Source: Acrocarpospora corrugata
GTDB taxonomy: Bacteria > Actinomycetota > Actinomycetes > Streptosporangiales > Streptosporangiaceae
Length of the DNA stretch: 64,000 nucleotides
Assembly: GCF_009687845.1 (NCBI RefSeq)
Contig: NZ_BLAD01000036.1
Coordinates: forward strand, 62,001 to 126,000
Direction: 5' to 3'
The notes under the pieces were generated by a model. It had not been told where the DNA came from and made no database searches. It saw only the letters and a list, made by a program, of their open reading frames with translations. Position 1 is the stretch's first letter; the number at the start of each line of letters is the position of its first letter. Below are positions 2,809-19,226 of this stretch, in pieces. The position numbers and the translations under genes are program-made.

Positions 2809-4269
2809 ATGGACGCACTTGACCTGGCACGGTGGCAGTTCGGGGTCACCACCGTTTACCACTTTCTCTTCGTACCCCTGACGATCGGCCTGGGCGTGTT
2901 CGTGGCGGGGTTGCAGACCGCCTGGCTCCGTACGGGCAAGGAGCACTACCTCACGCTGACCAAGTTCTTCGGGAAGATCTTCCTGATCAACTTCGCGATG
3001 GGGGTGGTCACCGGCATCGTGCAGGAGTTCCAGTTCGGGATGAACTGGAGTGAGTACTCGACGTTCGTCGGTGATGTCTTCGGGGCGCCGCTGGCGCTGG
3101 AGGCGCTGCTGGCGTTCTTCCTGGAGTCCACGTTCCTCGGGTTGTGGATCTTCGGGTGGGACAAGCTGCCCAAGAGGGTGCATCTGGCCTGCCTGTGGAT
3201 CGCCGTCATCGGGTCCAACCTGTCGGCGTACTTCATCCTGGCGGCCAACGCCTGGATGAAGCATCCGGTGGGCTACGTGGTGGTGGACGGCCGGGCCCAG
3301 ATGACCGATCTGTGGGCGGTGCTGACCAACTCGACCGCGCTGGCGCAGGTGCCGCACGTGGTGGGGGCGTCGTTCGTGGTGGCCGGGGTGTTCGTGCTGG
3401 CGATCAGCGGTTACCGCATCCTGAAGGAGCGCGGCGCGACGGGCCTGCTGCCGCGGAAGAGCGACTTCACCACCCCGCGCGACCGGAAATCTCCGGACAT
3501 GTGGCGGACGAGTCTTCGGGGTGCGCTGGTCATGACGGCGATCGCGGGGGTGGTCGTCGCGGGGACCGGGGACCTGTCCGGGCAGTTGCTGCACGAGCAG
3601 CAGCCGATGAAGCTGGCGGCGGCGGAGGGGCTGCGGCACGACACCGCGGGCGCGCCGTTCTCGCCGCTGCCCGGCGTCGAGATCCCGCACCTGCTGAGCC
3701 TGCTGGCCGCGCACGACCCGAACGCCGTCGTGCAGGGCGTCGACGACATCCAGCGGCGGTTCGAGGCGCAGTTCGGCCCGGGTGACTATATGCCGAACCT
3801 GCCCGTCGTGTTCTGGTCCTTCCGGGTGATGGTGATGCTGGGCTCCGCGGCCATCGGCCTGTCCGTGCTCGGCCTGTGGCTGACCAGGGGGCGTGGCCGC
3901 CGGGCCAGGAACGTGCCGACCTGGTTCGCCAAGGCGTGCCTGCTCGCGCTGCCGCTGCCGGTCCTGGCGATGATCGCGGGCTGGCTGCTCAGCGAGATCG
4001 GCCGCCAGCCGTGGACGGTGGCCGGCGAGCTCCTCACCGCCGCCAGCGTCTCCCCCGGCGTCACCGTCACCGAGATCGCCATCTCCCTCGCCGTCTTCAC
4101 CGGCCTGTACGGCCTGCTCGCCCTCGCCGAGGCAGGACTCATCCTCCGGCACGTCAAGGCCGGCCCCGAGGCTCCGGCCCAGGACCCCCGGAACCCTCGC
4201 GACCCCGACGAGACGGTGCTGATCCCCCGCCAGCTACAGGCCGAGTCCCGGCCGACCCTGATGTACTGA
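2809..4269 (+). CDS. cydA: Cytochrome bd quinol oxidase subunit I (first copy)
   Basis: 486 residues. The start is ATG 2809 behind GGAGGGGG. Subunit I of cytochrome bd oxidizes quinol and carries the hemes for oxygen reduction. The N-terminus MDALDLARWQFGVTT ends at His18, matching the heme-ligand histidine of E. coli CydA (His19). The family motif GRQPW lies near residues 398-402, the quinol-loop region is short, and about nine hydrophobic segments are visible. cydB follows after 10 bases. No cydDC assembly transporter accompanies the pair. A second cydAB set lies at 34016-36401. The operator-like repeats just upstream suggest control by respiration or redox state. Confidence 0.95.
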   Translation: MDALDLARWQFGVTTVYHFLFVPLTIGLGVFVAGLQTAWLRTGKEHYLTLTKFFGKIFLINFAMGVVTGIVQEFQFGMNWSEYSTFVGDVFGAPLALEALLAFFLESTFLGLWIFGWDKLPKRVHLACLWIAVIGSNLSAYFILAANAWMKHPVGYVVVDGRAQMTDLWAVLTNSTALAQVPHVVGASFVVAGVFVLAISGYRILKERGATGLLPRKSDFTTPRDRKSPDMWRTSLRGALVMTAIAGVVVAGTGDLSGQLLHEQQPMKLAAAEGLRHDTAGAPFSPLPGVEIPHLLSLLAAHDPNAVVQGVDDIQRRFEAQFGPGDYMPNLPVVFWSFRVMVMLGSAAIGLSVLGLWLTRGRGRRARNVPTWFAKACLLALPLPVLAMIAGWLLSEIGRQPWTVAGELLTAASVSPGVTVTEIAISLAVFTGLYGLLALAEAGLILRHVKAGPEAPAQDPRNPRDPDETVLIPRQLQAESRPTLMY

Positions 4270-4279
4270 GGATCCCGCC

Positions 4280-5188
4280 ATGACTACTTTCTGGTTCATC
4301 GTCATCGCGTTCCTCTGGACGGGCTACTTCGTCCTGGAGGGATTTGACTTCGGCGTCGGCGCGCTGCTGCCGCTGGTGGCCCGCGGCCCGGCCGAGCGCC
4401 GCCAGGTCCTCGGCACGATCGGCCCGGTCTGGGACGGCAACGAGGTGTGGCTGATCTCCGCGATCGGCGCCATGTTCGCCGCCTTCCCGGCCTGGTACTC
4501 CGGCTTTCTGAGCGAGTTCTACCTGGCCATGGTGCTGGTCGTGGCGGGCCTGGTGATCCGCGGCGTCGGCCTGGAGTGGCGCGGCAAGGTCCGCTCCGGG
4601 ACCGAGCTGGCGCTGTGCGACGCGGGGATCGTGACCGGCAGCGTGCTGGTCGCCTTCCTGTGGGGGGCGATCTTCGCCAACCTGCTGTTCGGCACCGGAC
4701 TGGCCACCGTACTCGGCGGCGCGCTTTCGCTGTCGCTGGCGCTGCTGCACGGCGCGGTGTTCCTGACCCTGAAGACCGAGGGCGCGGTACGGTCCCGCGC
4801 CCGGCTGGCGGCCCTGCTGGCCTCGGCCGGCACCCTGCCGATCGCGATCGCGGGTCTGTCCGCGCTGCCGAGCGGCGCCGACTCGGAGCTGCTCTGGGTG
4901 GCGTCGGGGACGGCGATGGCCGCGCTCGCGGCCGGGGTGGCCCTGGTGTGGCGGCGCCGGGAGGGGTGGGCGTTCGTGGCCACCGCGTCCGCGATCGTGC
5001 TGGCCACGGCGTCGCTGTTCGGGGCGCTGTATCCGGCGCCGCTGCCCGGTCTGACGGTGGCGGAGATGGCGTCGGCGCCGTACACGCTGACGGTGCTGAC
5101 CTGGATCGGGTTGGTGGCGTTGCCGGGGGTCATCGCCTATCAAAGCTGGACTTACTGGGTCTTCAGGAAGCGGTTGACCCGGGTGTGA
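4280..5188 (+). CDS. cydB: Cytochrome bd quinol oxidase subunit II (first copy)
   Basis: 302 residues. It starts with the typical FWTGYF-type segment (FLWTGYFVLEGFDFGVGALLP) and contains GPVWDGNEVWL, both characteristic of CydB. Around eight membrane helices are visible. It is the structural partner of CydA and stabilises the heme pair in the membrane. It is cotranscribed with the upstream cydA, 10 bases away. The C-terminus WTYWVFRKRL is typical of the family. Confidence 0.95.
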   Translation: MTTFWFIVIAFLWTGYFVLEGFDFGVGALLPLVARGPAERRQVLGTIGPVWDGNEVWLISAIGAMFAAFPAWYSGFLSEFYLAMVLVVAGLVIRGVGLEWRGKVRSGTELALCDAGIVTGSVLVAFLWGAIFANLLFGTGLATVLGGALSLSLALLHGAVFLTLKTEGAVRSRARLAALLASAGTLPIAIAGLSALPSGADSELLWVASGTAMAALAAGVALVWRRREGWAFVATASAIVLATASLFGALYPAPLPGLTVAEMASAPYTLTVLTWIGLVALPGVIAYQSWTYWVFRKRLTRV

Positions 5189-5228
5189 GGGGTGGGCGCG
5201 GGGTTGCGATCTAGTCCCTAGCTGGGGA

Positions 5229-5242
5229 GACTACTCATAGTC
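5229..5242. promoter_or_regulatory. Short inverted repeat upstream of the desaturase operon
   Basis: GACTA-CTCA-TAGTC is a perfect 5-bp inverted repeat with a 4-base loop, 37 bases before the proposed desaturase start. It sits where an operator of the downstream operon would be expected. No regulator is identifiable. Confidence 0.3.
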
Positions 5243-5279
5243 AGATCGTATCGCCTTGGGTAACCATCGAGGAGCGCCC

Positions 5280-6245
5280 TTGTCTGCCGTCGCCGGGCTC
5301 GTGCCCGCCCCCCGCTCGGCCAGTTACCGGATCTCGATGGTGCTGCTGTTCGGGGCGCTGCCCCTGATCGGCCTGGGGGTGGCCGTCCCGGCCGCGTGGG
5401 GGTGGGGGCTCGGCTGGCGGGATGTGGGCATCGCCGCGGCGATGTACACGATCTGCATCTTCGGCATCGGCGTCGGCTTCCACCGCCTGTTCACGCACCG
5501 GGCCTTCAAGGCGTCCCGGCCGCTGCGGATCGCGCTGGCGGTGGCCGGGTCGCTGGCCATGGAGTCGCCGCTCACCTCCTGGGTGTCGGAGCACCGGCGG
5601 CACCACAAGTACGCCGACCGCGAGGGCGATCCGCACTCCCCCTGGCGGTATGGCGAGGACTGGAAAGGCCTGGCCAAGGGCCTGCTGTTCGCGCAGGTGG
5701 GCTGGTTCATCGTCGGCACCGAGCGGGCCGACCCGCGTCACTACGCGCCCGACATCCTGGCCGACCGGGACCTGCGCCACTTCTCGATGCGCAGCTACGC
5801 CGCGTTCGCGCTGGCCTCGATGGCACTGCCGCCGCTGGTCGGCGGCCTGCTCTCCTGGTCCTGGCACGGCGCGCTGACCGCGTTCGTGTGGGGCTCCCTG
5901 GTGCGGTACGCGCTGGTGCACCACGTGACCTGGCTGGTCAACTCGGTCTGCCACACCTTCGGCGACCGCGACTTCGCCACCGCCGACCGGGCCGGGAACG
6001 TCGGCTGGGTGGCGATGCTGACCTTCGGCGAGGGCTGGCACAACTACCACCACGCCGACCCGACCTCGGCCAGGCACGGCGTGCTCAAGGGCCAGTGGGA
6101 CGCCAGCGCCCGGCTGATCTGGCTGTTCGAACGGCTCGGCTGGGCGTTCGACGCGCGCTGGCCGGATCAGCAGAGGGTCAGCGCGAAGCGGGATGGGGAG
6201 AAACAGCGTGGGGAGAAGCGCGGGGCGAAACGGGGGGTTCGATGA
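5280..6245 (+). CDS. Acyl-CoA/acyl-lipid fatty acid desaturase
   Basis: 321 residues if translation starts at TTG 5280, five bases after GGAG; an in-frame TTG at 5256 has no ribosome site. It is an integral-membrane diiron desaturase with three histidine boxes: HRLFTH (HX4H), EHRRHHKYAD (HXXHH) and EGWHNYHHADP (HXXHH), separated by hydrophobic hairpins. The family inserts a cis double bond, typically delta-9, into saturated acyl chains using oxygen and external electrons. It is the first gene of an operon whose next members are a P450, a cyclooxygenase-like peroxidase and a hydrolase, so it may create the unsaturated substrate of that pathway. Its last four bases (ATGA) overlap the P450 start. 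Confidence 0.9.
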   Translation: MSAVAGLVPAPRSASYRISMVLLFGALPLIGLGVAVPAAWGWGLGWRDVGIAAAMYTICIFGIGVGFHRLFTHRAFKASRPLRIALAVAGSLAMESPLTSWVSEHRRHHKYADREGDPHSPWRYGEDWKGLAKGLLFAQVGWFIVGTERADPRHYAPDILADRDLRHFSMRSYAAFALASMALPPLVGGLLSWSWHGALTAFVWGSLVRYALVHHVTWLVNSVCHTFGDRDFATADRAGNVGWVAMLTFGEGWHNYHHADPTSARHGVLKGQWDASARLIWLFERLGWAFDARWPDQQRVSAKRDGEKQRGEKRGAKRGVR

Positions 6246-7471
6246 GTTATCTGGAACGTTACGACGAGCTGCGGGCGGCGGATCCTGGGCGGGCCGCGGG
6301 GGCGGTCGCGGAGTGGATCGCCGGGGAGTGGCGGCCGTTCTTCGCCGAACTGCGCGCCGCCAGGCCGGTGCTGGCCACGCCCGCGTTCACCTTGGTCACC
6401 CGGTTCGCGGACGTCACCGAGGTGCTGTCCCGCGAGCAGGTGTTCACGGTCCGGCTGTATGGGACGCCGATGGAGGCCGTGCTGGGCGGGCCCTACATGC
6501 TGACCCAGGACGCGACGCCGCTGCACTGGGCGGAACGGGGGCTCACCCAGGCGGTCCTGCCGGCGCACGACATCCCGCGGGTGCGGGAACTGGCGGGGCG
6601 GTATGCGGACGAGGCGCTGGACGCGGCCGCGCCCGCCGGGCGGATCGACGCGGTCGAGGAACTGGCGCGTCAGGTGCTGCTGCGGATCTGCGGCGACTAC
6701 CTGGGCGTGCCCGGCCCCGATCCGGCCACGCTGTCGGAGTGGTCGCGGGACTCGATGCACGACATCATCAGGAACCTCCCCCGTGACCCGAACGTGCACG
6801 CGACGGCCTGCGCGGCCGGGGCTGGGCTGCGGGCGCACGTCAACGAGCTGATCGCGGAGCGCAGGCGGGCCCCGGGCGAGGACGCGCTGTCGCGGCTGAT
6901 CGCGCTCGCGCCGCCCGCCTCGCTGGGCTTCGACGACCTGCGGCTGACGGTCAATGCCGCCGGGCTGCCGCTCGGCCTGGTGGAGAACGCCGCCCAGTCG
7001 ATCGTCCAGATCATCCGGCACCTGCTCGGCCGTGAGGACGGCGTCCGCGAGGAAGCCGTCGCCGCCGCCAAGGCCGGCGGGCCCTTCGACGGCTACGCCT
7101 GGGAGGCGCTGCGCTTCGCGCCGTTCAACCCGCTCATCTTCCGGTTCTGCGAGCGCGACCACCGGCTGGCCTCGGGCGCGTTCATCAAGGCGGGCACCCC
7201 GGTCTTCGCCTGCACCTCCTCGGCGGGCATGGACGAGGAGGCGGTGGCGGCGCCGGAGGAGTTCCGGATCGACCGTCCGGGCTTCGTCCGGCTCCAGTTC
7301 GGCTACGGCGCGCACGAGTGCGTCGGCAAGCACGTCGGCGTGGCCGTCATCCCCGAGGTGGTCCGGCGCGTGTTGCGGCGGCCGGGGGTGGCGCTGCCGC
7401 CGGGCGCGGCGATCGAGTTCGACGGCGGGCCGTTCCCGCGCCGGTTCCCGCTCACGCTGGGGGCGTCGTGA
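6242..7471 (+). CDS. Cytochrome P450 with Asn-type I-helix (hydroperoxide-isomerase-like)
   Basis: 409 residues, starting at ATG 6242 in an ATGA overlap with the desaturase. The heme-binding loop FGYGAHECVGKH places the thiolate at Cys360, and the EALR motif is present. In the I-helix the usual acid-alcohol pair (E-T-T in related actinobacterial P450s) is E248-N249-A250, followed by Q252. Loss of the oxygen-activating threonine and an Asn-x-x-Gln pattern are known, from memory, in the P450 domains of fungal linoleate diol synthases, which rearrange hydroperoxides instead of activating O2. The next gene encodes a cyclooxygenase-like dioxygenase, the same pairing as in those fused fungal enzymes. 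No redox-partner gene is nearby, which also fits a self-sufficient isomerase. The function is inferred. Confidence 0.85.
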   Translation: MSYLERYDELRAADPGRAAGAVAEWIAGEWRPFFAELRAARPVLATPAFTLVTRFADVTEVLSREQVFTVRLYGTPMEAVLGGPYMLTQDATPLHWAERGLTQAVLPAHDIPRVRELAGRYADEALDAAAPAGRIDAVEELARQVLLRICGDYLGVPGPDPATLSEWSRDSMHDIIRNLPRDPNVHATACAAGAGLRAHVNELIAERRRAPGEDALSRLIALAPPASLGFDDLRLTVNAAGLPLGLVENAAQSIVQIIRHLLGREDGVREEAVAAAKAGGPFDGYAWEALRFAPFNPLIFRFCERDHRLASGAFIKAGTPVFACTSSAGMDEEAVAAPEEFRIDRPGFVRLQFGYGAHECVGKHVGVAVIPEVVRRVLRRPGVALPPGAAIEFDGGPFPRRFPLTLGAS

Positions 7472-9015
7472 AGCCGAGCGCCCGGGTCGGCCGGCGCAAC
7501 TACCTGGAATTCTGGGCGCTGACCAACCTGGCGCCCCTCTGGCGGCTAATCCGGCTGGTCCGGCCGCTGCACGCCGCGGTCAACAGGTTCCTGGTGAACC
7601 GGCTGGTGATGAAGCTGCCCGTCCGGCCCAATCCGCTGAGCACGAAGGCCAGGTACACCTCCTGGGAGTCGCTCACCGACCGCACCTTCGACAGCCGCCA
7701 CCTGCCGCCGGTGCCGCCGTCCACGTCGGCGCCCGCGCCGGCCGAGGTCGCGGAGCTGTTCCGGCGCGACGGCCGGACAATGAACTGCCCGCGCTCGACC
7801 GTGCTGTTCGCGTATTTCGCGCAGTGGTTCACCGACGGCTTCCTGCGCGGCGACATGAGCATCCCGCGCGATCCGCGCAAGAACAGCTCCAACCACGAGA
7901 TCGACCTCAACCAGCTGTACGGGCTCACGCCGGCGGTCACGGCCGCGCTGCGGACCGGGTCGGGGGGCCTGCTCAAGAGCCAGGTGGTGAACGGGGGCGA
8001 GTTCCCGCCGTACCTGTGCGAGCTGGGGCGGATCAAGGACGAGTTCGCGCCGCTGAACGTGATCCGGTTCGACGACATCCCGTTCGGGGCGCGGGACGCG
8101 CTGTTCGCCTGCGGCAGCGACCGGGCCAACCTGCACATCGGCTTCACCATGCTGACCACGCTGTTCCTGCGCGAGCACAACCGGGTGGCCAGGCTGCTGG
8201 CGGAGCGGTATCCGGGCTGGGACGACGAGCGGCTCTTCCAGACCAGCAGGAACATTCTCGTGGTGCTGCTCATCAAGATCGTCCTTGAGGAGTACATCAA
8301 CCACATCACGCCCACGCTGTTCCGGGTGGCGCTGGATCCGGCCGTGTCCAGGAAGGCGATCTGGACGCGGACCAACCACATGGCGATCGAGTTCAACCTG
8401 CTGTACCGCTGGCACAGCCTGATCCCGTCGGTGCTGCTCGCGGGTGGCCAGGAGCGTCCGCTGGGCGACACGATGGCCGGGAACCGGCTGCTGCCCGAGT
8501 GCGGGATCGGCCCGCTGTTCGAGGACGCGGCCAGCCAGCGCGCGGGGCGGATCGGCCTGTTCAACACCGATCCCGACCTGCTGCACGTCGAGGTGATGAG
8601 CGTCGCGGAGGGGCGGGCGGTGGAGCTGGCCTCCTTCAACGACTACCGCGCGTACTGCGGTTTCCCGCGGTTGAAGTCGTTCGCGGAGGTGTCCGCCGAT
8701 CCGAGGGTGCAGCGCGGGCTGGCGGCGCTGTATCCGAGCGTGGACGACATCGACTTCTATACCGGGATCTTCGCGGAGGATCCGCTGCCGGGGTCGCTGC
8801 TCTCGCCGGTCATGCAGCGGATCATCACGGTGGACGCGTTCTCGCAGGCGTATGCGAATCCGCTGCTGTCGCCGCAGGTGTTCGGGCCTGAGACCTTCTC
8901 CCCCACCGGGATGGAGATCATCGGGGCGACGGGGTCGCTGGCGGACGTGCTGAACCGCAACCTGCCGGAGGCGACCCGGCGTTACCAGGCGCGGATGACG
9001 CATGAGCGGAGCTGA
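7468..9015 (+). CDS. Cyclooxygenase-like animal heme peroxidase (fatty acid dioxygenase)
   Basis: 515 residues, starting at GTG 7468 in a GTGA overlap with the P450 stop. It resembles prostaglandin H synthase over most of its length: EIDLNQLYG, TLFLREHNRVA, GWDDERLFQTSR and IVLEEYINHI. EFNLLYRWHSLIP carries Tyr313 and His316, matching the radical tyrosine (Tyr385) and proximal heme histidine (His388) of sheep COX-1. In the distal motif FAQWFTDGF the glutamine (Q119, matching Gln203) is kept, but the distal histidine (His207) is replaced by Asp123. Peroxidase activity is therefore probably altered while tyrosyl-radical oxygenation of a fatty acid remains plausible. No signal peptide is evident. 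The 3' end overlaps the hydrolase by 14 bases. Confidence 0.9.
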   Translation: MKPSARVGRRNYLEFWALTNLAPLWRLIRLVRPLHAAVNRFLVNRLVMKLPVRPNPLSTKARYTSWESLTDRTFDSRHLPPVPPSTSAPAPAEVAELFRRDGRTMNCPRSTVLFAYFAQWFTDGFLRGDMSIPRDPRKNSSNHEIDLNQLYGLTPAVTAALRTGSGGLLKSQVVNGGEFPPYLCELGRIKDEFAPLNVIRFDDIPFGARDALFACGSDRANLHIGFTMLTTLFLREHNRVARLLAERYPGWDDERLFQTSRNILVVLLIKIVLEEYINHITPTLFRVALDPAVSRKAIWTRTNHMAIEFNLLYRWHSLIPSVLLAGGQERPLGDTMAGNRLLPECGIGPLFEDAASQRAGRIGLFNTDPDLLHVEVMSVAEGRAVELASFNDYRAYCGFPRLKSFAEVSADPRVQRGLAALYPSVDDIDFYTGIFAEDPLPGSLLSPVMQRIITVDAFSQAYANPLLSPQVFGPETFSPTGMEIIGATGSLADVLNRNLPEATRRYQARMTHERS

Positions 9016-10381
9016 CGAGCCGAAAGACCGGCGGCGGCTGCTTCAGGTCGCCGCCGAGCTCGTCGCGGTGGCCGAACAGATCGAAGCCGTCTCGGTCCGG
9101 GCCACGGCGGCGCTGACGCGGGAGCTCAGGCCGGGCGCGCTGCTGCGGGCCGTGCCGGGGTTCCGGCCGCAGCGCCGTCTGTTCCGGGCGCTCACGCGGC
9201 GTGCTGGGCTGGGGATCGCCTTCTCCGGGGGGCCGCTCGGGCGGCCGATCGCCAGGCTCTCCGGGCTGGCGGGGCCTGGCAGGCTGGCGGTGCACGTGTT
9301 GGTGCTGTCGCTGCGCCTGCGGATCGCGGCGGTCGAGCTCAGTCATCCGGAGGTGGCCCGCGATCCCGTGCTACGGCGGCTGATCGAGGCGATCTCCCAG
9401 GATCGGGATGTGGCGGCGGCCCGCGCGCTGCGCGCCCTGTTCAAGGATCGGGGGGCCGAGGACGCGCTGAGCGCGATCGCGCCCATGTTCGGCGAGATCC
9501 TGGCGCTGCGCGCCCTGCTGGACGAGAACCCGTTCAACGACGCCGTCGGCTGGGCGATGGCCACCGGGAAGTGCGTCATGAACACCGACCCCATCCTCGG
9601 GATCACCACCCGCGTCATGTCCTCGATGGACCGGGGCGTCGGGGCCGCCCTGCCCACGGAGCCCACCCCCGAGGAGATCGCCCGGCTCCGCACCGGGCAC
9701 TCCATCGTGGCCATTCTCCGCAACATCGACGCCATCGGGACCGACGGCCGGGTTCTCCTCCAGAGCGTGCTGGGGCCCGACGACGTGGTGAGATATGTAG
9801 TTCAAGCGCCCGGTATGCGGCCCGGCGGCCCTCGCAACGACTCCCCGCAGGACCTGGTGGGGGCCTTCCGGAACACCGTGCTGCACGCCTCGCCGTACAC
9901 GGGGGCGCTGAAGGACGCGATCGACCAGTTCGGCGTCCCGGACGGGGCGGAGATCGCCCTCGTCGGGCACAGCGCCGGCGGCTCCGCCGTCATGAACCTC
10001 GCCCAGGATCCCGGCTTCTGCGGCCGCTACCGCGTCACCCACGTCATCGCGGCCGGCTCCCCCATCGACTTCAAGACCCCCGCCGACCCGCGCACCTGGA
10101 TCTCCTCCATCACCAACCAGCACGACCTGATCCCCGTCCTGGACGGCCAGGGCTCCGGCACCTGCTTCGACCTCCACCCCACCTGGTACACGGTCGACTA
10201 CGCCGACGCCACCCACCGTTTCCCGCTCTGCCACAGCGTCGCCCAGTACGCCGCCAACCTGGCCGGCGACCTCCCCGAAGCCCGCGGCCACATCGACGCC
10301 CAGCTCACCCCCTACCGGGGCTCCCTGATCCGCTCCCAGCTCTACCTCATGCTCGACCACCCGCCGAAGGACCCGCCATGA
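9002..10381 (+). CDS. Alpha/beta-hydrolase, lipase-like (GHSAGG)
   Basis: 459 residues. The catalytic domain is C-terminal: the nucleophile elbow GHSAGG near residue 322 is followed by plausible acid and histidine positions (HDLIPVLDG, DATHRFPLCH). The first ~200 residues are helical with some hydrophobic stretches and match nothing I recognise. It overlaps the peroxidase gene by 14 bases and the next small gene by ATGA, so it belongs to the same operon. In a fatty-acid oxygenation pathway it could release the acyl substrate from lipid or hydrolyse a product ester. That role is inferred from position. Confidence 0.7.
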   Translation: MSGADEPKDRRRLLQVAAELVAVAEQIEAVSVRATAALTRELRPGALLRAVPGFRPQRRLFRALTRRAGLGIAFSGGPLGRPIARLSGLAGPGRLAVHVLVLSLRLRIAAVELSHPEVARDPVLRRLIEAISQDRDVAAARALRALFKDRGAEDALSAIAPMFGEILALRALLDENPFNDAVGWAMATGKCVMNTDPILGITTRVMSSMDRGVGAALPTEPTPEEIARLRTGHSIVAILRNIDAIGTDGRVLLQSVLGPDDVVRYVVQAPGMRPGGPRNDSPQDLVGAFRNTVLHASPYTGALKDAIDQFGVPDGAEIALVGHSAGGSAVMNLAQDPGFCGRYRVTHVIAAGSPIDFKTPADPRTWISSITNQHDLIPVLDGQGSGTCFDLHPTWYTVDYADATHRFPLCHSVAQYAANLAGDLPEARGHIDAQLTPYRGSLIRSQLYLMLDHPPKDPP

Positions 10382-10581
10382 CCCACGACGCCGACACCCT
10401 GGAGACCTGCGCCACCACCCTCACCACCCTGGCCGACCGCCTCACCGAGGACCCGGCCGTCCCCCCATGGCTCCAGACCGCCATCCGCGCCTACGCCACC
10501 CGCTGCCGCATCGCCGCCGCCGACCTGACCGCGGCCGAGTCGCCAGGCGACCTCAATGGCGCGCAAGAAGAGGGCCGATAA
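10378..10581 (+). CDS. Small hypothetical protein, last gene of the oxygenase operon
   Basis: A 67-residue acidic, mostly helical protein starting at ATG 10378, which overlaps the hydrolase stop codon (ATGA) and so is probably translationally coupled. Its composition has the codon bias of neighbouring genes. No motif, signal peptide or membrane segment is seen. Function unknown; its position suggests an accessory to the upstream enzymes. Confidence 0.5.
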   Translation: MTHDADTLETCATTLTTLADRLTEDPAVPPWLQTAIRAYATRCRIAAADLTAAESPGDLNGAQEEGR

Positions 10582-10615
10582 CGCTGAACACGGGAAGAGA
10601 AACCCGCCGGCCGGT

Positions 10616-10825
10616 TCACTCCATAATCTTGTGCAGTCCCATGGCGACCGCGCCGGCCGCGGCCAGTCCGGTGACGGCGGCGAGCGGAATCGGAATACCG
10701 CCGAGCGCGCAGAGGCCCGCGATGATCAGTCCTATGACAACGCTGGCAAGCAAAATCACAACGGCCCTGGAGGTTAACAACGGGCCCGGCTGATGAGGGC
10801 GATCATCGCCACTGGGTAGCGTCAC
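10616..10825 (-). CDS. Small two-helix membrane protein
   Basis: A 69-residue protein starting at GTG 10825, with GAGGAG about seven bases upstream on the minus strand. After a polar 20-residue N-terminus come two hydrophobic segments, AVVILLASVVIGLIIAGL and IPLAAVTGLAAAGAVAMGL, and a short HKIME tail. The frame is open further upstream but without coding character. The topology is like small holin-like or stress membrane proteins, but no family is recognised. It is convergent with the oxygenase operon. Confidence 0.5.
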   Translation of the reverse strand: MTLPSGDDRPHQPGPLLTSRAVVILLASVVIGLIIAGLCALGGIPIPLAAVTGLAAAGAVAMGLHKIME

Positions 10826-11280
10826 GGAGGGCTCCTCTCCATTTCGATCGAGTGCTGGCAACGGGGCAACCTCCCTGCCAGGGAGCGTTGCCCACCAAGA
10901 ACCGCGGCTGAAGCACGCGAAGACACTTGGACCGGCGACGTCATCGGCGCGCAGCCGTGCCGCCCACATCCTTGAGGACAGGCCGGATTCTAACAGCGTG
11001 ATCGGACCGCCGATCAGGCCCTAGAGGTCCAGCACAACTTTCTATTTGCACGTGCATCCTCACATGCATCCGCAAGCACGGAAGATAGCACAGATTCTGC
11101 TATTTCGGCCTAGACAAGAGAAAAATAAAGATTCTTTACATTTGAAGCTTAAACGGAATTAGGTTTCCGACCCCGACCATGAGAAATGCGGCGAAAGCGG
11201 CCTATGGGATTAATCCGCTCGAATTTCGGGCAGCCGATTCTCATAACTCCCTGGCACAGCCGCAGAGATCGAGCCATTAA
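10826..11280. other. AT-rich intergenic region with a possible short open frame
   Basis: About 455 bases without a long gene, noticeably AT-rich between 11040 and 11280. A 33-codon frame starting at ATG 11179 and ending TAA 11280 reads MRNAAKAAYGINPLEF at its start; it has a weak ribosome site and near-neutral GC3, so coding is doubtful. ATGAGAA (11179-11185) and TTCTCAT also form a 7-bp inverted repeat around it, so a folded RNA is an alternative. TTTACA at 11135-11140 could be a -35 element. Confidence 0.3.
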
Positions 11281-13667
11281 TTAGCGCGGTGAGCGCAGGC
11301 GGAGGTCGTACAGGTCGGAGGGGGAGATGGGCATTCGGTCGATCGGGAAGCCTTCGGCGTCCTCGATGGCGGCGGCGATGACGGCGGAGACCGGGATGAC
11401 GCCCGCTTCGCCGGCGCCCTTGATGCCCAGGGGGTTCAGGGGGGACGGGGTTTCGAGGTGGTCGGTCTCGATGTGCGGGATCTCGGTCGCGTACGGCATG
11501 AGGAAGTCCATGAACGAGGCGTTCAGGAGCTGGCCGTGCTCGTCGTAGACCATCTTCTCGTAGAGGGCGCCGCCGACGCCCTGGGCGACGCCGCCGTGGA
11601 TCTGGCCCTCCACCAGCATGGGGTTGATCATTTTGCCGCAGTCGTGGACGACGGCGTAGCGGAGGATGCGGATCTCGGCCGTCTCCGGGTCGGTTTCGAC
11701 GATGGCGGCGTGCATGCCGGAGGCGAAGGTGGAGCGGATGGGTGAGTAGTAGCCCTTGCCTTCGAGGCCGGGCTCCTCGCCCTCGGCGACGGGCGGGCGG
11801 TCCATGCTGCCGGTGGTCGCGAACTGGGTGGCGCGTTTGGCCTCTTCGTCGAAGGCGTACCTGAGCGGGTTGGAGAGGACGGCGACGGTGGCGAGCGGGA
11901 TGGAGGCGGCGGGTGAGCCGACGACGTGAACCACGCCGTCGGTGATCTCCAGGTCGCGGGGGTCGGCTTCGAGGGCGTCGGCGGCCACCCGCAGGGCCTT
12001 CTCGCGGACCTTGCGGCAGGCCAGGGCGATGGCGTTGCCGCTCATCACGGCGGCGCGGGAGGCGAAGGTGCCGACGGCGTAGCCGAAGCGGCGGGTGTCG
12101 CCGGTGACGACGGAGACGCGTTCGATCGGGACGCCGAGTTCGGTGGCGGCGATCTGGGCGAAGACGGTCTCGTGGCCCTGGCCCTGGGAGGTGAGCCCGG
12201 TGGAGACGTGCACCCGGCCGTCGGAGGTGATCTGGATGTGGCCGCCCTCGTACGGGCCGACGCCGGTGCCTTCCACGTAGCAGCCGAGCCCGATGCCGAG
12301 CCGCCGCCCTTCGGCCCGCGCGGACTCCCGCAGCGCGGGGAACTCGTCCCAGCCGATCAGGTCCTTCAGCTTGCGCAGCGATTCGGGATAGTCGCCGCTG
12401 TCGTAGATGAGCGGCCGGCCGTCCTGGAAGATCAGCCCCTGGTCGTAGGGGAACTGGTCGGGCTGGATGAAGTTGGCGGCCCGGACGTCGGCGCGGTCGA
12501 GCCCCAGCTTCTGGGCGATCTTGTCCATCGTGCGTTCCATGCAGAACACGCCCTGCGGCCGCCCGGCCCCCCGGTACGGCGTCACCTGCACGGTATTCGT
12601 ATAGATCGAGGAGAACTCGACCCGATAGGCCCCGATCCGGTACGGCCCCAGCAGCTGCGTCGACGTGATGATCGGCACGATGATCCCGTACGGGGTGTAC
12701 GCGCCGTGATCATGCAGAATCTCGACCGACAGCCCCAGCACCCGCCCGGCGTCGTCGAACCCCACCTGGACGTGCTGGATCTGGGCCCGCTCGTGCGCAC
12801 TGGAGATGAAGTGCTCCCGCCGGTCCTCCGTCCACTTGATCTCCTGGTTGAGCAGCCGGGCGGCCCACGGCACCAGCACCTCCTCCGGCCACGGGTGCAC
12901 GATCTTGACCCCGAACCCGCCGCCGACGTCGGGCGCGATCACCTCGACCTTGGGCAGCGGCAGCCCCAGCTTGGCGGCGATCGCCATCCGCACGCTGGTG
13001 GAGGTCTGGGTGGAGGAGTACACGCGGAGCGATTCGTCGTCGGCGTCCCACCGGGCGTACACGCCCTTGCCTTCCAGCGGCATGCAGGCGCTGCGCTCGA
13101 TGTCGAGGCGGAACGCGAGCGTGTGCGGCGCGGCCGCGATGGCTTCGGCGGCGGACTGCCCGCCGGCGGAGGGGACCTCCTGGACCAGGTGCGCTCCCAC
13201 GTTGCCGGGCACGTCCTGGTGCACCAGATGGGTGCTGGAGACGGCTTCCTCCAGGCCGACGACCGGCTTGAAGTACTCGTAGCCGATCTCGATCAGCGAG
13301 CAGATGTCCTCGGCCAGGTAGCGATCGCGGGCGACCACCATCACGATCGGCTCGCCGACGTGCCGGACGATGTCGCGGGCCAGCGGGTAGGCGGTGCGGC
13401 CGTGGGTGAGCGCCGGATGCGGGATGAGCAGCGGCAGCGGCTCGGCGACCCCGGCGGGCAGGTCCTCCCAGGTGTAGATGGCGACCAGGCCCGCCACCTC
13501 CAGCGCGGCGTCCACGTCGATGCTGGTGATCCGGGCGTGCGCGTGCGGGGAGCGGACGAAGGCGGCGGCCAGCGCCTGCTGCCCGAGGTCGTCCAGGAAC
13601 CGGCCTTCGCCGCTGACCAGGCGGGCGTCCTCGCGCCGCCGGACCGGTTCGCCGAAGAGCTTGGTGG

Positions 13668-13671
<4 letters not shown>
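11281..13671 (-). CDS. Molybdenum hydroxylase large subunit (xanthine dehydrogenase family)
   Basis: 796 residues. The start is GTG 13671, overlapping the stop of the iron-sulfur subunit gene (GTGA). It begins with the aldehyde oxidase/xanthine dehydrogenase hammerhead domain (GEPVRRREDARLVSGEGRF) and continues into the molybdopterin-binding domains: DVGGGFGVK, the active-site loop PYRGAGRPQG, and near the end IKGAGEAGVIP, where the glutamate is the catalytic base of the family. The loop is of the RGAGR (form II) type, not the AYxCSFR of true CO dehydrogenase. It forms a heterotrimer with the two upstream genes. The purine/ureide neighbours suggest a purine or related N-heterocycle as substrate, but sequence alone does not decide. 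Confidence 0.88.
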
Positions 13672-14136
<465 letters not shown>

Positions 14137-14144
<8 letters not shown>

Positions 14145-14985
14145 CGGCCGCCGCCTTCAGCGCGCGTTCCACCAGCACCCCGGTCAGGTGCCGCCGATAG
14201 TCCGCCGTCGCGTGAATGTCCGCCTCCGGTTCGATCCGATCCTGTACGGCCGCCACCACCGCCCGCCAGTCCACCGAGGCCACCGGCCGGTTGCCGCACT
14301 CGCCGGTGACCTCGACCACCACGGGCACGGGGCCGACGCTGACGCACACCACCTTGGCGGCGGTGATCCGCAGGTCGTCGAGCCGGACGGCGGCGGCCAC
14401 CCCGGCCATCGCGTAGTCGCCGTGCCTGCGCGCCACCTCGATGAAGGAGGTGCCGCCGTCCCAGGCAGGGAAGAAGGCGGAGACGGCCAGTTCGCCCGGC
14501 CGGGTGGCGGACTCCATCGGGCCGGTGAAGAAGTCGGCGGCGGCGACCTCGCGCTCGCCGGTGGCGGCGGCCAGCCGTACCGAGCCGCCGAGCAGGGCCA
14601 GCACGGCCGGGAGTTCGGCGGAGGGGTCGGCGTGCACGAGGCTGCCGACGATGGTGCCGCGGTTACGGATGACCGGGTGCGCGACCAGTTTGAGCGCCTG
14701 CCGGAGCAGGGGCTGCGCGAGGCACGCGGCGGCGGAACGCTCCACCTGGGCGTGCCGGGCCAGCGCCCCGACCCGGACGCCGGTCGCGTCCGTCTGGATC
14801 TCGCCGAGCCCGGCCACCCGGTTGATGTCGACCAGGTGGGCCGGGGCGGCGAGCCGCATGTTGAGCAGGGGGATCAGGCTCTGGCCTCCGGCCAGCACCT
14901 TTCCGTGCGCGCCCACCTCGGCGAGGACCTCTACGGCCTCCCGCACCGAGGTGGGCGCGTGATAGTCGAACGGCGGCGGTTTCAC
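14137..14985 (-). CDS. Molybdenum hydroxylase FAD-binding subunit
   Basis: 282 residues. The N-terminal motif AGGQSLIPLLNMRLA and the later RNRGTIVGSLVHADPSAELP are the FAD-binding signatures of CoxM/XdhB-type subunits. A C-terminal CO-dehydrogenase flavoprotein domain follows. First gene of the hydroxylase operon, it is separated from the upstream permease gene on the same strand by only 38 bases, so transporter and enzyme may be cotranscribed. Confidence 0.92.
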
Positions 14986-15023
14986 GAAAGTCGTTCTACT
15001 CCGATCGCGTTACGGATAAAGGC

Positions 15024-16361
15024 TCAACCCGTGGAATTTTTCGCCACCTCCGCGGGCGACAGCGCGCGCAGCAGGTGGTAGCCGCCGAGCACGACGATCG
15101 TGCCGAGGGCGATGCCCGCGAGCGAGAAGTCCCCGGTGATCGCGTGGCTCACCGGGCCGATGGCCAGGATGATGCCCGCTCCGATGGGAAGCATGTTCAC
15201 CGGGTCGGCGAAGTCCACCTTGTTCTCCACCCAGATCTTCGCGCCGAGCAGGCCGATCATGCCGTACAGGATGACCGTGATGCCGCCGAGCACGCCGCCG
15301 GGGGTGGCGTAGACGAGCGCGCCGAACTTGGGCACCAGGCCGAGCAGGATGGCGATGACGCCGGCGATGTAGTAGGCGGCGGTGGAGTAGACCCGGGTCG
15401 CCGCCATGACGCCGATGTTCTCCGCGTAGGTGGTGGTGGGCGAGCCGCCGACGGCCGAGGTGAGCGCGGTGCCCACGCCGTCGCCGATGATGGCGCGGCC
15501 GATGTAGGGGTCCACGTCGGTCTTGGTCATCTCACCGACCGCCTTGACGTGGCCGATGTTCTCGGCGATCAGCGCGATCACCGCGGGCAGCACCAGCACG
15601 ATGGCCGACACCTGGAAGGTCGGCGCGTGGAAGCTGGGCAGCCCGAACCAGTCGGCGGTGCCGACCGAGTCCAGGTTGACCCGGGGGTGGGTGTCGACCT
15701 GGCCGGTGGCCGCGTTGAGCGCGGTGATGTTCCCGAAGACCTGGTCGGCGACCCAGGACAGGACGAAGCCGAAGACCAGGCCGAGCAGGATGCCGATCCG
15801 GCCGAGGAAGCCGCGGAACAGCGCGATGATCATGAAGGTGGCGATCATCGTGATCAGCGCGATCCAGTGGTCCTGCGGCCAGTAGACGTCGGCCACCACG
15901 TACGCCAGGCCGAAGCCGATCAGCATGACCACCGCGCCGGTCACCACCGGCGGGAAGATCTTGTGGATGATCTGGACACCGAGGTAGTGGATGGCCACCC
16001 CGCACAGCGCCAGCACGACGCCGGCCACCAGAATGGCGCCGGTGACGGTCGCGCTGTCGCCCTGCGCGGCCCGGATCGCGATCACACCGCCCACGAACGA
16101 CGCCGAGGTGCCCAGGTAGCTGGGGACCTTGCCCTGCACGATCAGCAGGAACAGGATCGTCGCGACACCCGACATCATCACCGCGACGTTCGGGTCCAAG
16201 CCCATGATCACCGGGAACACGAACGTGGCGCCGAACATGGCGATCACATGCTGCGCGCCGAAGCCGAGCATGCGTGGCCAGGACAGGCGTTCGTCCGGCT
16301 TGACGACCTCACCAGGGGCGAGGCCGCGTCCCTCGCCGTGCACTTTCCAGCCGAAAGCCAT
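15024..16361 (-). CDS. NCS2-family nucleobase permease (uracil/xanthine)
   Basis: 445 residues with about 14 hydrophobic segments. NCS2 hallmarks are present: PVIMGLDPNVAVMMSG, the substrate-site AENIGHVKAVGEMT and GGSPTTTYAENIGVMA. The last resembles UraA more than the xanthine-specific PbuX group, so uracil, xanthine or urate are all possible substrates. It imports a nucleobase with protons. It is transcribed toward the hydroxylase subunits and lies downstream of the PucR regulator gene on the same strand. Confidence 0.88.
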   Translation of the reverse strand: MAFGWKVHGEGRGLAPGEVVKPDERLSWPRMLGFGAQHVIAMFGATFVFPVIMGLDPNVAVMMSGVATILFLLIVQGKVPSYLGTSASFVGGVIAIRAAQGDSATVTGAILVAGVVLALCGVAIHYLGVQIIHKIFPPVVTGAVVMLIGFGLAYVVADVYWPQDHWIALITMIATFMIIALFRGFLGRIGILLGLVFGFVLSWVADQVFGNITALNAATGQVDTHPRVNLDSVGTADWFGLPSFHAPTFQVSAIVLVLPAVIALIAENIGHVKAVGEMTKTDVDPYIGRAIIGDGVGTALTSAVGGSPTTTYAENIGVMAATRVYSTAAYYIAGVIAILLGLVPKFGALVYATPGGVLGGITVILYGMIGLLGAKIWVENKVDFADPVNMLPIGAGIILAIGPVSHAITGDFSLAGIALGTIVVLGGYHLLRALSPAEVAKNSTG

Positions 16362-16518
16362 GTGAGCCCCTTTACTTGCCTGGGCCGACGTCCGGTGGCC
16401 ACCCCGCGGGCATCCCAGCGCGGCATTTCTGGTTCACGGGCCTCCTACCAGGCCCGTTGCGGGCACATTAGGACTGTGATCGCCGTTGCACACGGGCATC
16501 ATCTGCCAAACCGCGTGG

Positions 16519-18150
16519 TCAGATACCACGCATGTTCAGCACATGGAGGGCGAGGGTCAGGTTCAGCCGGAGGTGCGCGTCCTCGGTGAAGTTGCCGAGC
16601 ATGCGCTCCAGTTTGCCGATCCGGTAGCGCAGCGTGTTGTAGTGGAAGTGCAGCCGGCGCGCCGTCTCGGCCACGTTGAGGTTGGTTTCCAGGAGCACGT
16701 GCAGCGTTCGGCGCAGGTCCGCGTTCTCGGCGTCGTCGTCGCCGGCCAGGCCGCCGAGCGTCTCGCGGACGAAGGAGTGCAGTTCCGCGGTGTCGTCGAC
16801 GAGGGAGAGCAGGCGGTAGACGCCGAGCTGGTCGAAGTGGGCGACCGCGCCCGAGCCGTGCAGCTGGCGGCCGACCCGGGCGGCCTTGAGCGCCTGGCCG
16901 TACGCGTCGGCGAGTGCGTCGGCCCCGGGCGCGATCCTGCTCATCCCGGTGGAGAAGGTGCAGTCGGCGAAGGCCGAGGAGGCGGCCGAGGCGAGCCTGG
17001 CGGTGTCCACGCCCGCGCCGACGACGGCGACCACCTCGTGCGAGAATCCGGCGACGGCGCCGCGCGGGTCGTGCCGCCGGACCGCCGCCTGCCAGGCGGC
17101 CAGCAGCCGGTCCTGGGCGGTGCGCTCGTCGCTCTCCGGGTCGAGTTCGGCCACCAGCACCGAGACCGGGCGTTCCAGGTCCCACCCGAACGCCTTGGCG
17201 CGCTCGGCGATCCGGCTGCCGCCCCGGCCGGTGAGCACGTCGCGCAGGAAGTCGGCGCGGTACTTGCTCTCGACGGCGGTGACGGCCTCCTGCTTGGTGA
17301 CCACCAGGGCGGCCACGGTGGCGGCCCGCTCCAGGATCCGGATGTCGCTGTCGCGGAGCGTGCCGGCCTGGCTGAAGGCGGCGATCCGGCCGTGGTGGTG
17401 GCCGCCGGCCACGATCGGGACGACCGCGTAGTGGCCGTCGGCGCGGACCAGCGGGTCGGCGTCGGCGCGGGACGGCTCCGACCTGCCGGTCAGATTGCCG
17501 CTCAGCACGTACGCCTCCCGCAGCATGGCCACCTGCTCCGCGCCCCCCGCCGAGGCCAGCACGTGCCCGGACACGTCCACGGCGGCCACGGCCACGTCCA
17601 GCAGCCCGGCCACCTCGGCGGTGACCTCGCGCATGCCGCCCCCCGCCAGGATGATCTGCACCAGCGCGCGGTGCGCCTCCTCGGCCCTGGCCAGGGTGGC
17701 GGCCTGCCTGTTCAGGATGTCGGTGAGCACCTGGTTGAGGATGTCGTCGAAGCCGACGTCGTTGGGGAGCAGGATGAGCGGGAAGTTGAGCCGGTCGGCC
17801 TGCTCGACCATCTCGTCGGGCAGTTCGTCGAGGTAGCGGCCCAGCTTGATGGCCAGCGCGGAGAGCCCGCGTTCGTCAAGATCCGCCACAAGCCGGCCGA
17901 GTGACTGGGGAGTGTTCCTGAGCGGATAGCCCGTAGTGAGCAGAAGCTCGTTCGGTTTCACCCAGGCGAGAATGTCGGGGACTTCCATGACGTTGAGCCG
18001 CTGGACGATCCGGTCCAGTCCGCCCTTGCCCGCGATCAGCCGGGCCCCGGCGAGGGTGGAGACCCCCAGCACCTCGCCGACGGCCACGCCATGGATGATC
18101 GTTCCGGTGCTGGCCAGGCGCATGGCGGGGGCTGCGGGGTCACTCGTCAT
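16519..18150 (-). CDS. pucR: PucR-family purine catabolism regulator
   Basis: 543 residues. The N-terminal PucR domain (VGEVLGVSTLAGARLIAGK onward) is followed by a GAF-like/GGDEF-like middle and the C-terminal PucR helix-turn-helix, LNVAETARRLHFHYNTLRYR with a closing leucine-rich segment. PucR of Bacillus controls purine degradation genes. Here the gene is divergent from the AllH/AllFG genes and lies upstream of the nucleobase permease and molybdenum hydroxylase. It probably controls both arms from the 151-base intergenic region, where TTGGCCGACTGTTGGC near 18225-18240 is a candidate site. Confidence 0.88.
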   Translation of the reverse strand: MTSDPAAPAMRLASTGTIIHGVAVGEVLGVSTLAGARLIAGKGGLDRIVQRLNVMEVPDILAWVKPNELLLTTGYPLRNTPQSLGRLVADLDERGLSALAIKLGRYLDELPDEMVEQADRLNFPLILLPNDVGFDDILNQVLTDILNRQAATLARAEEAHRALVQIILAGGGMREVTAEVAGLLDVAVAAVDVSGHVLASAGGAEQVAMLREAYVLSGNLTGRSEPSRADADPLVRADGHYAVVPIVAGGHHHGRIAAFSQAGTLRDSDIRILERAATVAALVVTKQEAVTAVESKYRADFLRDVLTGRGGSRIAERAKAFGWDLERPVSVLVAELDPESDERTAQDRLLAAWQAAVRRHDPRGAVAGFSHEVVAVVGAGVDTARLASAASSAFADCTFSTGMSRIAPGADALADAYGQALKAARVGRQLHGSGAVAHFDQLGVYRLLSLVDDTAELHSFVRETLGGLAGDDDAENADLRRTLHVLLETNLNVAETARRLHFHYNTLRYRIGKLERMLGNFTEDAHLRLNLTLALHVLNMRGI

Positions 18151-18301
18151 CGTCTGCTCCGGGGGGTTGGTGCATCTCCCGCCGATTGTGCCCGACTATC
18201 CGACTGTCAGGAAGAGCCAAGCATTTGGCCGACTGTTGGCAGTTTTCCCCGTACGGCCTCTGGGGGGCTCGTTCTAACGTCACCCTGATGAGGGAGGTCT
18301 G

Positions 18302-19198: not shown

Positions 19199-19226
19199 TC
19201 CGGCTCTGAATCTTCAGGGGGCGTTC

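What the first reader, a model, noticed from the sequence alone, without database searches (positions are those of the whole stretch)
5280..10581. Putative bacterial oxylipin operon: desaturase, P450, cyclooxygenase-like peroxidase, hydrolase
Five genes overlap or abut on one strand (ATGA, GTGA, 14-base and ATGA overlaps). Seen: complete histidine boxes in the desaturase, P450 heme loop, COX-type EFNLLYRWH in the peroxidase, GHSAGG in the hydrolase. Known: fungal Ppo/linoleate diol synthases fuse a COX-like dioxygenase to a P450 hydroperoxide isomerase. Inference: here the two activities are separate proteins made together with enzymes that could desaturate and release the fatty acid, so the operon may make a hydroxylated or dihydroxylated lipid mediator.
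Basis: partly seen in the sequence, partly recalled or inferred. Interest (0 to 1): 0.9.

Follow-up and report, generated by a model that had tools for sequence, protein, structure and literature searches.

The report
Two-protein bacterial fatty-acid oxygenase cassette
Soil actinomycetes carry a conserved gene set that pairs a cyclooxygenase-like fatty-acid dioxygenase with its own cytochrome P450, a desaturase and a hydrolase, and that looks like a bacterial, unfused counterpart of the enzymes fungi use to make lipid signals.

Summary
In detail: five genes overlap head to tail at 5280-10581 with intact active-site motifs. It is no chance assembly. In the window's family the dioxygenase (DOX) and the P450 were each found in 75 of 341 genomes, 74 shared, and adjacent in 72 of those 74. 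In 80 named loci the P450 lies within 1.2 kb upstream of DOX in 71. Hydrolase, desaturase and small gene recur with the pair. A homologous pair sits on three rhizobial plasmids. The closest characterised relative is not fungal Ppo or COX but the cyanobacterial linoleate 10S-dioxygenase: nearly all its published active-site positions are matched, and COX's distal His is Asp in all 81 proteins compared. Of 15 cyanobacterial loci, 13 carry a catalase-related gene beside DOX and none this P450. Best reading: a 10-type dioxygenase makes a fatty-acid hydroperoxide and the P450 converts it (diol, epoxy-alcohol or cleavage product). No activity, product or signalling role is shown. New variant of a known kind; ten searches of an open-access library found no description.

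The parts
5280..6245 (+). Acyl-CoA delta-9-type membrane fatty-acid desaturase (DES); start codon uncertain (5256, 5280 or 5301)
   Evidence: PF00487 E=4.8e-20; the only two solved sequences matched are acyl-CoA desaturases 4ymk and 4zyo, E 1.9e-29 and 5.4e-29; DES family in 64 of 81 loci
6242..7471 (+). Cytochrome P450; proposed hydroperoxide-converting partner. Cys360 at 7319-7321, I-helix Asn249 at 6986-6988, Gln252 at 6995-6997
   Evidence: PF00067; AF2 model pLDDT 92.7 with a helix at 232-262; bacterial P450 fold; Asn at the Thr position of the acid-alcohol pair, against Thr in 14 and Ala in 1 of 15 other own-genome P450s read
7468..9015 (+). Cyclooxygenase-like fatty-acid dioxygenase (DOX), 10S-DOX type. 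Catalytic Tyr313 at 8404-8406, proximal His316 at 8413-8415, Asp123 (in place of COX distal His) at 7834-7836
   Evidence: PF03098 E=9e-49; COX-2 E=4.9e-61; positions match published 10S-DOX substrate-site motifs
9002..10381 (+). Alpha/beta-hydrolase-like protein with helical N-terminal half, GHSAGG nucleophile elbow, Ser324 at 9971-9973
   Evidence: Abhydrolase_6 E=1.4e-4, below cut-off; S324 invariant in the 34 sequences of A3; AF2 pLDDT 85.3; Foldseek top hits are peptidase/esterase/lipase hydrolases but E no better than 0.015
10378..10581 (+). Small ORF (67 aa), no known family; small genes of 67-102 aa usually follow the hydrolase in relatives
   Evidence: no Pfam or NCBIfam match; two small-gene groups in 41 and 11 of 81 loci, the window's own falling in neither but in a third Acrocarpospora group; 10 of the 41 match it by BLAST; it stays next to the hydrolase, also in Streptomyces loci where that pair is inverted

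Best explanation
The cassette is a two-heme-protein fatty-acid oxygenation system. The desaturase supplies a delta-9 unsaturated acyl chain (inferred). The DOX uses a tyrosyl radical (Tyr313) to add O2 next to the delta-9 double bond, most likely giving a 10-hydroperoxide as its Nostoc relative does (inferred from homology and site residues). With Asp in place of the distal His it should be a poor peroxidase, so the hydroperoxide leaves intact (inferred). The neighbouring P450 then takes the hydroperoxide as its oxidant, without O2 or a redox partner, and rearranges it to a diol, epoxy-alcohol or cleavage product (inferred; which product is open). The alpha/beta-hydrolase-like protein probably frees or re-esterifies the acyl chain (weak). 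Thus the P450 fills in actinomycetes and rhizobia the place that a catalase-related hydroperoxide lyase fills in cyanobacteria (adjacency shown, function inferred).
For: DOX and P450 each found in 75 of 341 family genomes, 74 shared, adjacent and codirectional in 72 of 74, gap 200 bases or less in 66; the one P450-only genome, G318, has the first part of a DOX right behind the P450 at its contig end. P450 within 1.2 kb upstream on the same strand in 71 of 80 named loci (in 3 of the 71 only a fragment); 4-base overlap in 29 of 68 ORF-called pairs. Gene families by number of the 81 loci: P450 68, hydrolase 64, desaturase 64, small gene 41 and 11; the commonest family outside the cassette is 13. 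Cassette P450s, rhizobial ones included, form one clade apart from 15 other own-genome P450s, support 100/100; homologous pair on 3 rhizobial plasmids. DOX matches the published 10S-DOX positions F143, Y305, T310, Y342, D486, A487 (81, 81, 75, 81, 80, 78 of 81; positions from PMC13049297), and the distal His is Asp in 81 of 81. Cyanobacterial relatives: catalase-related neighbour in 13 of 15 loci, P450 in 0 of 15. P450 I-helix G-L-V-E-N-A-A-Q matches G, N and the second Q of the 5,8-LDS motif GMxxNQxQ; N at that site in 39 of 70 rows with a residue there, N together with Q in 18. Ten loci, all Streptomyces, add a ketoacyl synthase, some also an acyltransferase and a second desaturase (domains checked on L115 only), pointing to acyl chains.
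Against: No biochemistry. The I-helix residue is not uniform: Ser in 29 of 70 (Nonomuraea and kin), Thr in 2 of 70 and in both rhizobial P450s translated, so some members keep an acid-alcohol pair that O2-activating P450s use. In 9 of 80 loci no such P450 is adjacent (Frankia, Solirubrobacteraceae, others), and for the seven non-cyanobacterial ones I found no catalase-related gene either, so a DOX without either partner occurs. In G354 and G360 the P450 cassette stands without a full DOX beside it. Gly469 of 10S-DOX is Pro here. The hydrolase assignment is weak. Linoleate is not a usual actinomycete acid (recalled); oleate-type chains are likelier.
Confidence: 0.6

Rival explanations
1. Dioxygenase followed by an ordinary P450 monooxygenase: DOX makes the hydroperoxide, and the P450, fed by ferredoxin coded elsewhere, hydroxylates the same chain at another carbon with O2.
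For: Two rhizobial P450s and two MAG P450s keep Glu-Thr, and Nonomuraea-type ones Glu-Ser, at the acid-alcohol site; nearest folds include fatty-acid and steroid P450s such as CYP109 and P450BioI, monooxygenases by recall.
Against: Acrocarpospora, most Actinomadura and the Streptomyces members have Asn there, and Streptomyces also has Gln for Glu; none of the recurrent neighbour families that I scanned is a ferredoxin or ferredoxin reductase (most single neighbours were not scanned).
Confidence: 0.2
2. Peroxide disposal: the P450, like the catalase-related protein elsewhere, only detoxifies lipid hydroperoxides, and the system remodels membrane chains instead of making a specific product.
For: Two unrelated kinds of heme protein occupy the same place beside DOX; the window operon follows cydAB.
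Against: A dedicated peroxide-making enzyme is encoded with it, with a desaturase, hydrolase and in Streptomyces loci a ketoacyl synthase, which looks biosynthetic; among the 81 neighbourhoods cydAB is next to it only in Acrocarpospora. The Nostoc catalase-related protein is reported as a specific hydroperoxide lyase (PMC13049297 section 20).
Confidence: 0.12
3. The DOX acts on another substrate, such as an ACP-bound or polyketide-like chain or a glycerolipid, and the cassette makes a specialised metabolite and not an oxylipin.
For: Ketoacyl synthase and acyltransferase in Streptomyces versions; P450BioI bound to acyl-ACP is among the fold neighbours.
Against: Active-site positions follow 10S-DOX, which oxidises oleate and linoleate; most loci have no such extra genes.
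Confidence: 0.15

Closest known systems
Linoleate 10S-dioxygenase of Nostoc punctiforme (B2J5P4) with its catalase-related hydroperoxide lyase
   Same: Window DOX is about 43-49% identical to cyanobacterial relatives, of the same length class and with the same substrate-site residues (motif table PMC13049297); a separate heme protein alongside in 13 of 15 loci and a Tle1-like hydrolase gene in 11 of 15
   Different: Partner is a P450, not a catalase relative; desaturase and a different hydrolase; the Nostoc sequence itself was not in hand, only unnamed relatives, several of exactly 542 aa with matching numbering
Fungal DOX-CYP fusions (5,8-LDS, 7,8-LDS, 10R-EAS, AOS)
   Same: COX-like dioxygenase working with a P450; HxC in the Cys loop; G..N..Q in the I helix
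   Different: Two separate proteins with the P450 gene first; fungal distal His is retained but Asp here; P450 nearest in fold to bacterial ones; no fungal sequence was compared
Cyclooxygenase-1/2
   Same: Best PDB sequence hits, E to 4.9e-61; Tyr385, Tyr348 and proximal His equivalents kept
   Different: Distal His207 is Asp, Ser530 is Ala; prostaglandin chemistry not tested
Pseudomonas aeruginosa oleate 10S-DOX / 7,10-diol synthase
   Same: Bacterial two-protein diol-forming pair on long-chain fatty acids (PMC4496055, start of abstract in listings)
   Different: Heme c (CXXCH) di-heme peroxidase family; no P450, no COX-like protein

Membership tests
Bacterial 10S-DOX (peroxidase-cyclooxygenase superfamily) | Catalytic Tyr, central Tyr and proximal His in place | tested here: met
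   Y313, Y276, H316 in the window; 81 of 81 each
Bacterial 10S-DOX (peroxidase-cyclooxygenase superfamily) | Substrate-site pattern FtDxF, YIxxIT, I..DA...Q | tested here: met
   Window has all of these; F, D, F 81/81 each, I306 74/81, T310 75/81, I483 68/81, D486 80/81, A487 78/81, Q490 66/81 (Glu in the other 15). Exception: G469, where the window has Pro
Bacterial 10S-DOX (peroxidase-cyclooxygenase superfamily) | Makes 10S-hydroperoxide from oleate or linoleate | not testable with these tools
   needs enzyme and LC-MS
Cyclooxygenase | Distal His207 of the peroxidase site | tested here: not met
   Asp123 at that column
Cyclooxygenase | Ser530 | tested here: not met
   Ala457
Fungal linoleate diol synthase (Ppo) | DOX and CYP fused in one chain | tested here: not met
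   Separate ORFs, P450 first
Fungal linoleate diol synthase (Ppo) | I-helix GMxxNQxQ | tested here: inconclusive
   Window GLVENAAQ; N with Q in 18 of 70, N with G 21, S 29, T with Q 2
Fungal linoleate diol synthase (Ppo) | P450 domain of the fungal LDS subfamily | not tested
   no fungal sequence available here; nearest folds are bacterial P450s
Cytochrome P450 | ExxR and heme-thiolate Cys loop | tested here: met
   E288, R291, C360 invariant in 38-sequence alignment A2
Hydroperoxide-isomerising P450 | Turnover of hydroperoxide without redox partner | not testable with these tools
   only indirect: Asn at the Thr position
Acyl-CoA delta-9 desaturase | Three His boxes and SCD-like sequence | tested here: met
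   HRLFTH, HRRHH, HNYHH; 4ymk E=1.9e-29; the delta-9 position itself is recalled for this class, not tested
Alpha/beta hydrolase (lipase type) | Fold match and Ser-Asp-His triad | tested here: inconclusive
   S324, D375, H411 invariant in A3 but their pairing as a triad is a guess and Foldseek E is no better than 0.015

The most novel reading that the evidence does not exclude
The pair is the free-standing bacterial form of the DOX-P450 logic that fungi fused into Ppo enzymes: a 10-type dioxygenase whose hydroperoxide is passed to a dedicated P450 isomerase, present in Actinomycetota and on rhizobial plasmids, making secreted dihydroxy or epoxy-hydroxy fatty acids that act as signals between bacteria, fungi or plants. 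Bacteria would then hold two interchangeable second steps, P450 or catalase-related, for one dioxygenase.
Probability: 0.3. Interest if true: 0.87.

Novelty: new variant of a known kind. Interest (0 to 1): 0.7.

Why it matters
If right, it gives a genetically simple, separable bacterial system in which the dioxygenase and P450 halves can be studied apart, which the fungal fusions do not allow easily. It would extend COX-like oxylipin chemistry with P450 partners to Actinomycetota and to plant-nodulating rhizobia, show that the second step has been swapped between two unrelated heme proteins, and offer enzymes for hydroxylated fatty acids. It makes the open question of how DOX and P450 came to work together directly testable.

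Tried and rejected
A five-gene transcript as the general rule: rejected, since in most relatives the desaturase is divergent. Fused DOX-P450 proteins in bacteria, suggested by long open frames of 970-1,063 aa: not supported; in the three loci the P450 and DOX matches are separate and no fusion appeared among the ORF calls of 81 loci. Asn249 as a universal hydroperoxide-isomerase signature: rejected, Ser and Thr also occur. Hydrolase as a recognised lipase family: not supported. Filing the DOX as a cyclooxygenase or as a Ppo: not done, defining features failed. A ferredoxin role for the small ORF: rejected from its sequence (two Cys) and lack of a family. Promoter and terminator scan 5100-11300: one weak promoter-like site, no terminator. 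Literature: ten searches listed no paper whose title or abstract start describes an actinomycete or rhizobial DOX-P450 pair. Seen: PMC13049297 (outline, sections 9, 20, 24 and 28, and found passages), found passages only of PMC11719350, PMC9524268, PMC4420034 and PMC9579011, listings for the rest. PMC4420034 already speaks of putative bacterial cyclooxygenases. The key 2014 Nostoc paper is not held, and most subscription papers are not in the library, so a prior description cannot be excluded.
Full report
What is there. The window lies in a 9.27-Mb draft genome whose nearest named relatives are three Acrocarpospora species (Streptosporangiaceae), 87-88% identical in the key protein. Five codirectional genes overlap: desaturase, P450, COX-like protein (DOX), alpha/beta-hydrolase-like protein, and a 67-aa ORF. 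Upstream are cydA and cydB, downstream on the other strand a purine-catabolism cluster; among the 81 neighbourhoods compared both flanks are shared only with other Acrocarpospora loci, so the cassette proper is the five genes.

Conservation in the family. I searched all 341 genomes held for the window's family with DOX and with the P450 separately (only the best few candidates per genome are scored, so extra copies can be missed). Each is found in 75 genomes and 74 carry both. P450 lies next to and upstream of DOX on the same strand in 72 of 74, with at most 200 bases between the matches in 66. The genome with P450 only, G318, is no real exception: its contig ends within a DOX that starts right behind the P450. 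The genome with DOX only, G121, has a divergent DOX (44%). Of the two without adjacency, G354 keeps P450, hydrolase and desaturase together without a DOX and has a DOX elsewhere; in G360 only a weak DOX-like remnant of 56 residues (E=2e-4) follows the P450 and a divergent DOX lies elsewhere. A fourth member of the window's genus held here, G004, has neither gene.

Across the phylum the DOX is rare: 7 of 396 evenly drawn genomes, the window's own included. Of the other six, three have the P450 adjacent (G477, G626, G498), one has a P450 about 4 kb away on the other strand (G541), two have none in the 6-8 kb looked at (G754, G671); a second DOX of G498 has none either. Some of these genomes are the same as loci, so the collections are not independent.

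Conservation in named genomes. One scan of GTDB contigs kept the best 80 of 331 DOX-encoding stretches, so what follows holds for those 80, not for the 251 more distant ones. P450 is within 1.2 kb upstream on the same strand in 71 of 80; in three of the 71 (L044, L092, L110) only a part of it is matched. The nine without it are Frankia, Streptomyces albipurpureus, three Solirubrobacteraceae, a Verrucomicrobia MAG, an Acidimicrobiia MAG and two Scytonema. With ORF calling on the 80 loci plus window, family counts were DOX 81, P450 68, hydrolase 64, desaturase 64, small gene 41, a second small-gene group 11; outside these a flavin amine oxidase 13, a ketoacyl synthase 10 and nothing else above 9 (domains). 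The usual order is desaturase (divergent), P450, DOX, hydrolase, small gene; Streptomyces loci shuffle the order, ten of them add a ketoacyl synthase, and some an acyltransferase and a second desaturase. P450-DOX ORFs overlap by 4 bases in 29 of 68 pairs and DOX-hydrolase in 27 of 50.

Beyond actinomycetes. A tblastn of 72,556 plasmid records found 12 with a DOX. I looked at 9 of 12 (the other three are further Paracoccus yeei). Three rhizobial ones (Sinorhizobium medicae, Rhizobium etli, R. gallicum) have a P450 directly upstream, 37-41% identical to the window P450 and, for the two tested, 43-46% to a MAG cassette P450; those two fall in one clade with all cassette P450s (100/100), apart from 15 other P450s of the window's own genome (long branches among those controls, so only that split is used). 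Paracoccus yeei, Methylobacterium currus and two Ruegeria have instead a catalase-related gene next to DOX. Two Acaryochloris plasmids show neither within 4 kb. In the family of Scytonema 36 of 145 genomes have the DOX; in the 15 loci (14 genomes) I fetched, a catalase-related gene is near DOX in 13, a Tle1-like phospholipase gene (PF09994) in 11, the P450 in none. Conversely none of the 78 non-cyanobacterial loci and 15 further loci showed a catalase-related match longer than 60 residues. So one dioxygenase has two alternative heme partners, and in a minority of lineages neither was seen.

The dioxygenase. COX-2 is the best PDB match (E=4.9e-61). Oliw's review lists the substrate-site positions of Nostoc 10S-DOX (PMC13049297). 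Several cyanobacterial relatives are exactly 542 aa with FTDxF at 143 and DA at 486-487, so its numbering can be used although that exact protein was not in hand. On that numbering the 81 proteins (80 loci, two of them Scytonema, plus window) keep F143, Y305, Y342 and the proximal His345 in 81 of 81, T310 in 75, D486 in 80, A487 in 78, Q490 in 66 with Glu in 15; G469 is not kept. The distal His of COX is Asp in 81 of 81 and in 15 of 15 cyanobacterial proteins, so peroxidase activity is expected to be poor and a partner that deals with the hydroperoxide makes sense; that last step is inference. In a quick tree with a midpoint root, all cyanobacterial proteins fall in one starred group of 19, which also holds DOX of two actinobacterial MAGs (G541, G498), with the Verrucomicrobia MAG beside it; so transfer between phyla is likely.

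The P450. ExxR and the Cys ligand are invariant in 38 sequences. The AF2 model is confident (92.7), with bacterial P450s as the 50 listed nearest folds at 18-27% identity. At the Thr of the O2-activating acid-alcohol pair the window has Asn249; of 16 P450s read from the own genome by a Cys-loop pattern, the other 15 have Thr (14) or Ala (1) (P450s missed by the pattern are not in that count). Fungal 5,8-LDS has GMxxNQxQ there; the window has GLVENAAQ and Streptomyces mostly GYQQNATQ. Over 70 rows: Asn 39 (18 with the Gln), Ser 29, Thr 2; both translated rhizobial P450s have Thr. Oliw notes that the Asn is dispensable in some LDS and that 8R- and 9R-AOS have Thr. The residue therefore permits, but does not prove, hydroperoxide chemistry.

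Other genes. The desaturase is closest to stearoyl-CoA-type acyl-CoA desaturases. The hydrolase is weakly an alpha/beta hydrolase; most relatives are about 670-790 aa with a C-terminal extension of roughly 140-220 residues that the Acrocarpospora proteins, and three other calls (L051, L059, L087), lack. The small gene usually stays with the hydrolase.

Verdict. Real and conserved, not described in the papers my searches listed, but made of known parts; the chemistry is inferred. I rate it a new variant of a known kind.

Noticed in passing
L216:2679-5596, L217:2679-5581, L219:1679-4593: P450-DOX pairs on plasmids of nodule or legume rhizobia, one of them typed conjugative; possible oxylipin chemistry in symbionts.
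   Followed up: partly
L168, L169 (G354); L170, L155 (G360): Cassettes that lost or truncated their DOX while another DOX sits elsewhere in the same genome; G354's lone DOX is sister to the Acrocarpospora DOX.
   Followed up: partly
L201:4876-5883, L104:15246-16367, L170:6805-7665: Tle1-like phospholipase-domain genes (PF09994 in the first two; BLAST match in the third) recur beside or near DOX in cyanobacteria, a Solirubrobacteraceae MAG and next to a DOX remnant in G360.
   Followed up: partly
window 10378-10581: Small protein of no known family; small genes of this kind lie beside the hydrolase in many actinomycetes; function unknown.
   Followed up: partly
window 9002-10381: Acrocarpospora hydrolase lacks a C-terminal extension present in most relatives; what the extension does is unknown.
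   Followed up: partly
L160, L162 (G541, G498): Actinobacterial MAG DOX proteins that group inside the cyanobacterial clade, one in a genome that also has a P450-DOX cassette.
   Followed up: no
G000:C43, C45, C94 (L001, L003, L005): Further animal-peroxidase-family genes in the same genome, one with an 817-aa frame.
   Followed up: no
window 2809-5188: Cytochrome bd oxidase cydAB directly upstream of the cassette, in Acrocarpospora loci only among the 81 seen.
   Followed up: no
window 11281-19200: Purine-catabolism cluster: molybdenum hydroxylase subunits, xanthine/uracil-type permease, PucR regulator, AllH-like protein.
   Followed up: no
L198 and L212 (G769): Scytonema carries two DOX paralogues, each with its own distinct catalase-related neighbour, about 30% identical to each other.
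   Followed up: no
L088:14235-15698 and 12 other loci: Flavin amine oxidase family gene near the cassette, mostly after the small gene, in 13 of 81 loci (domain checked on L088 only).
   Followed up: no
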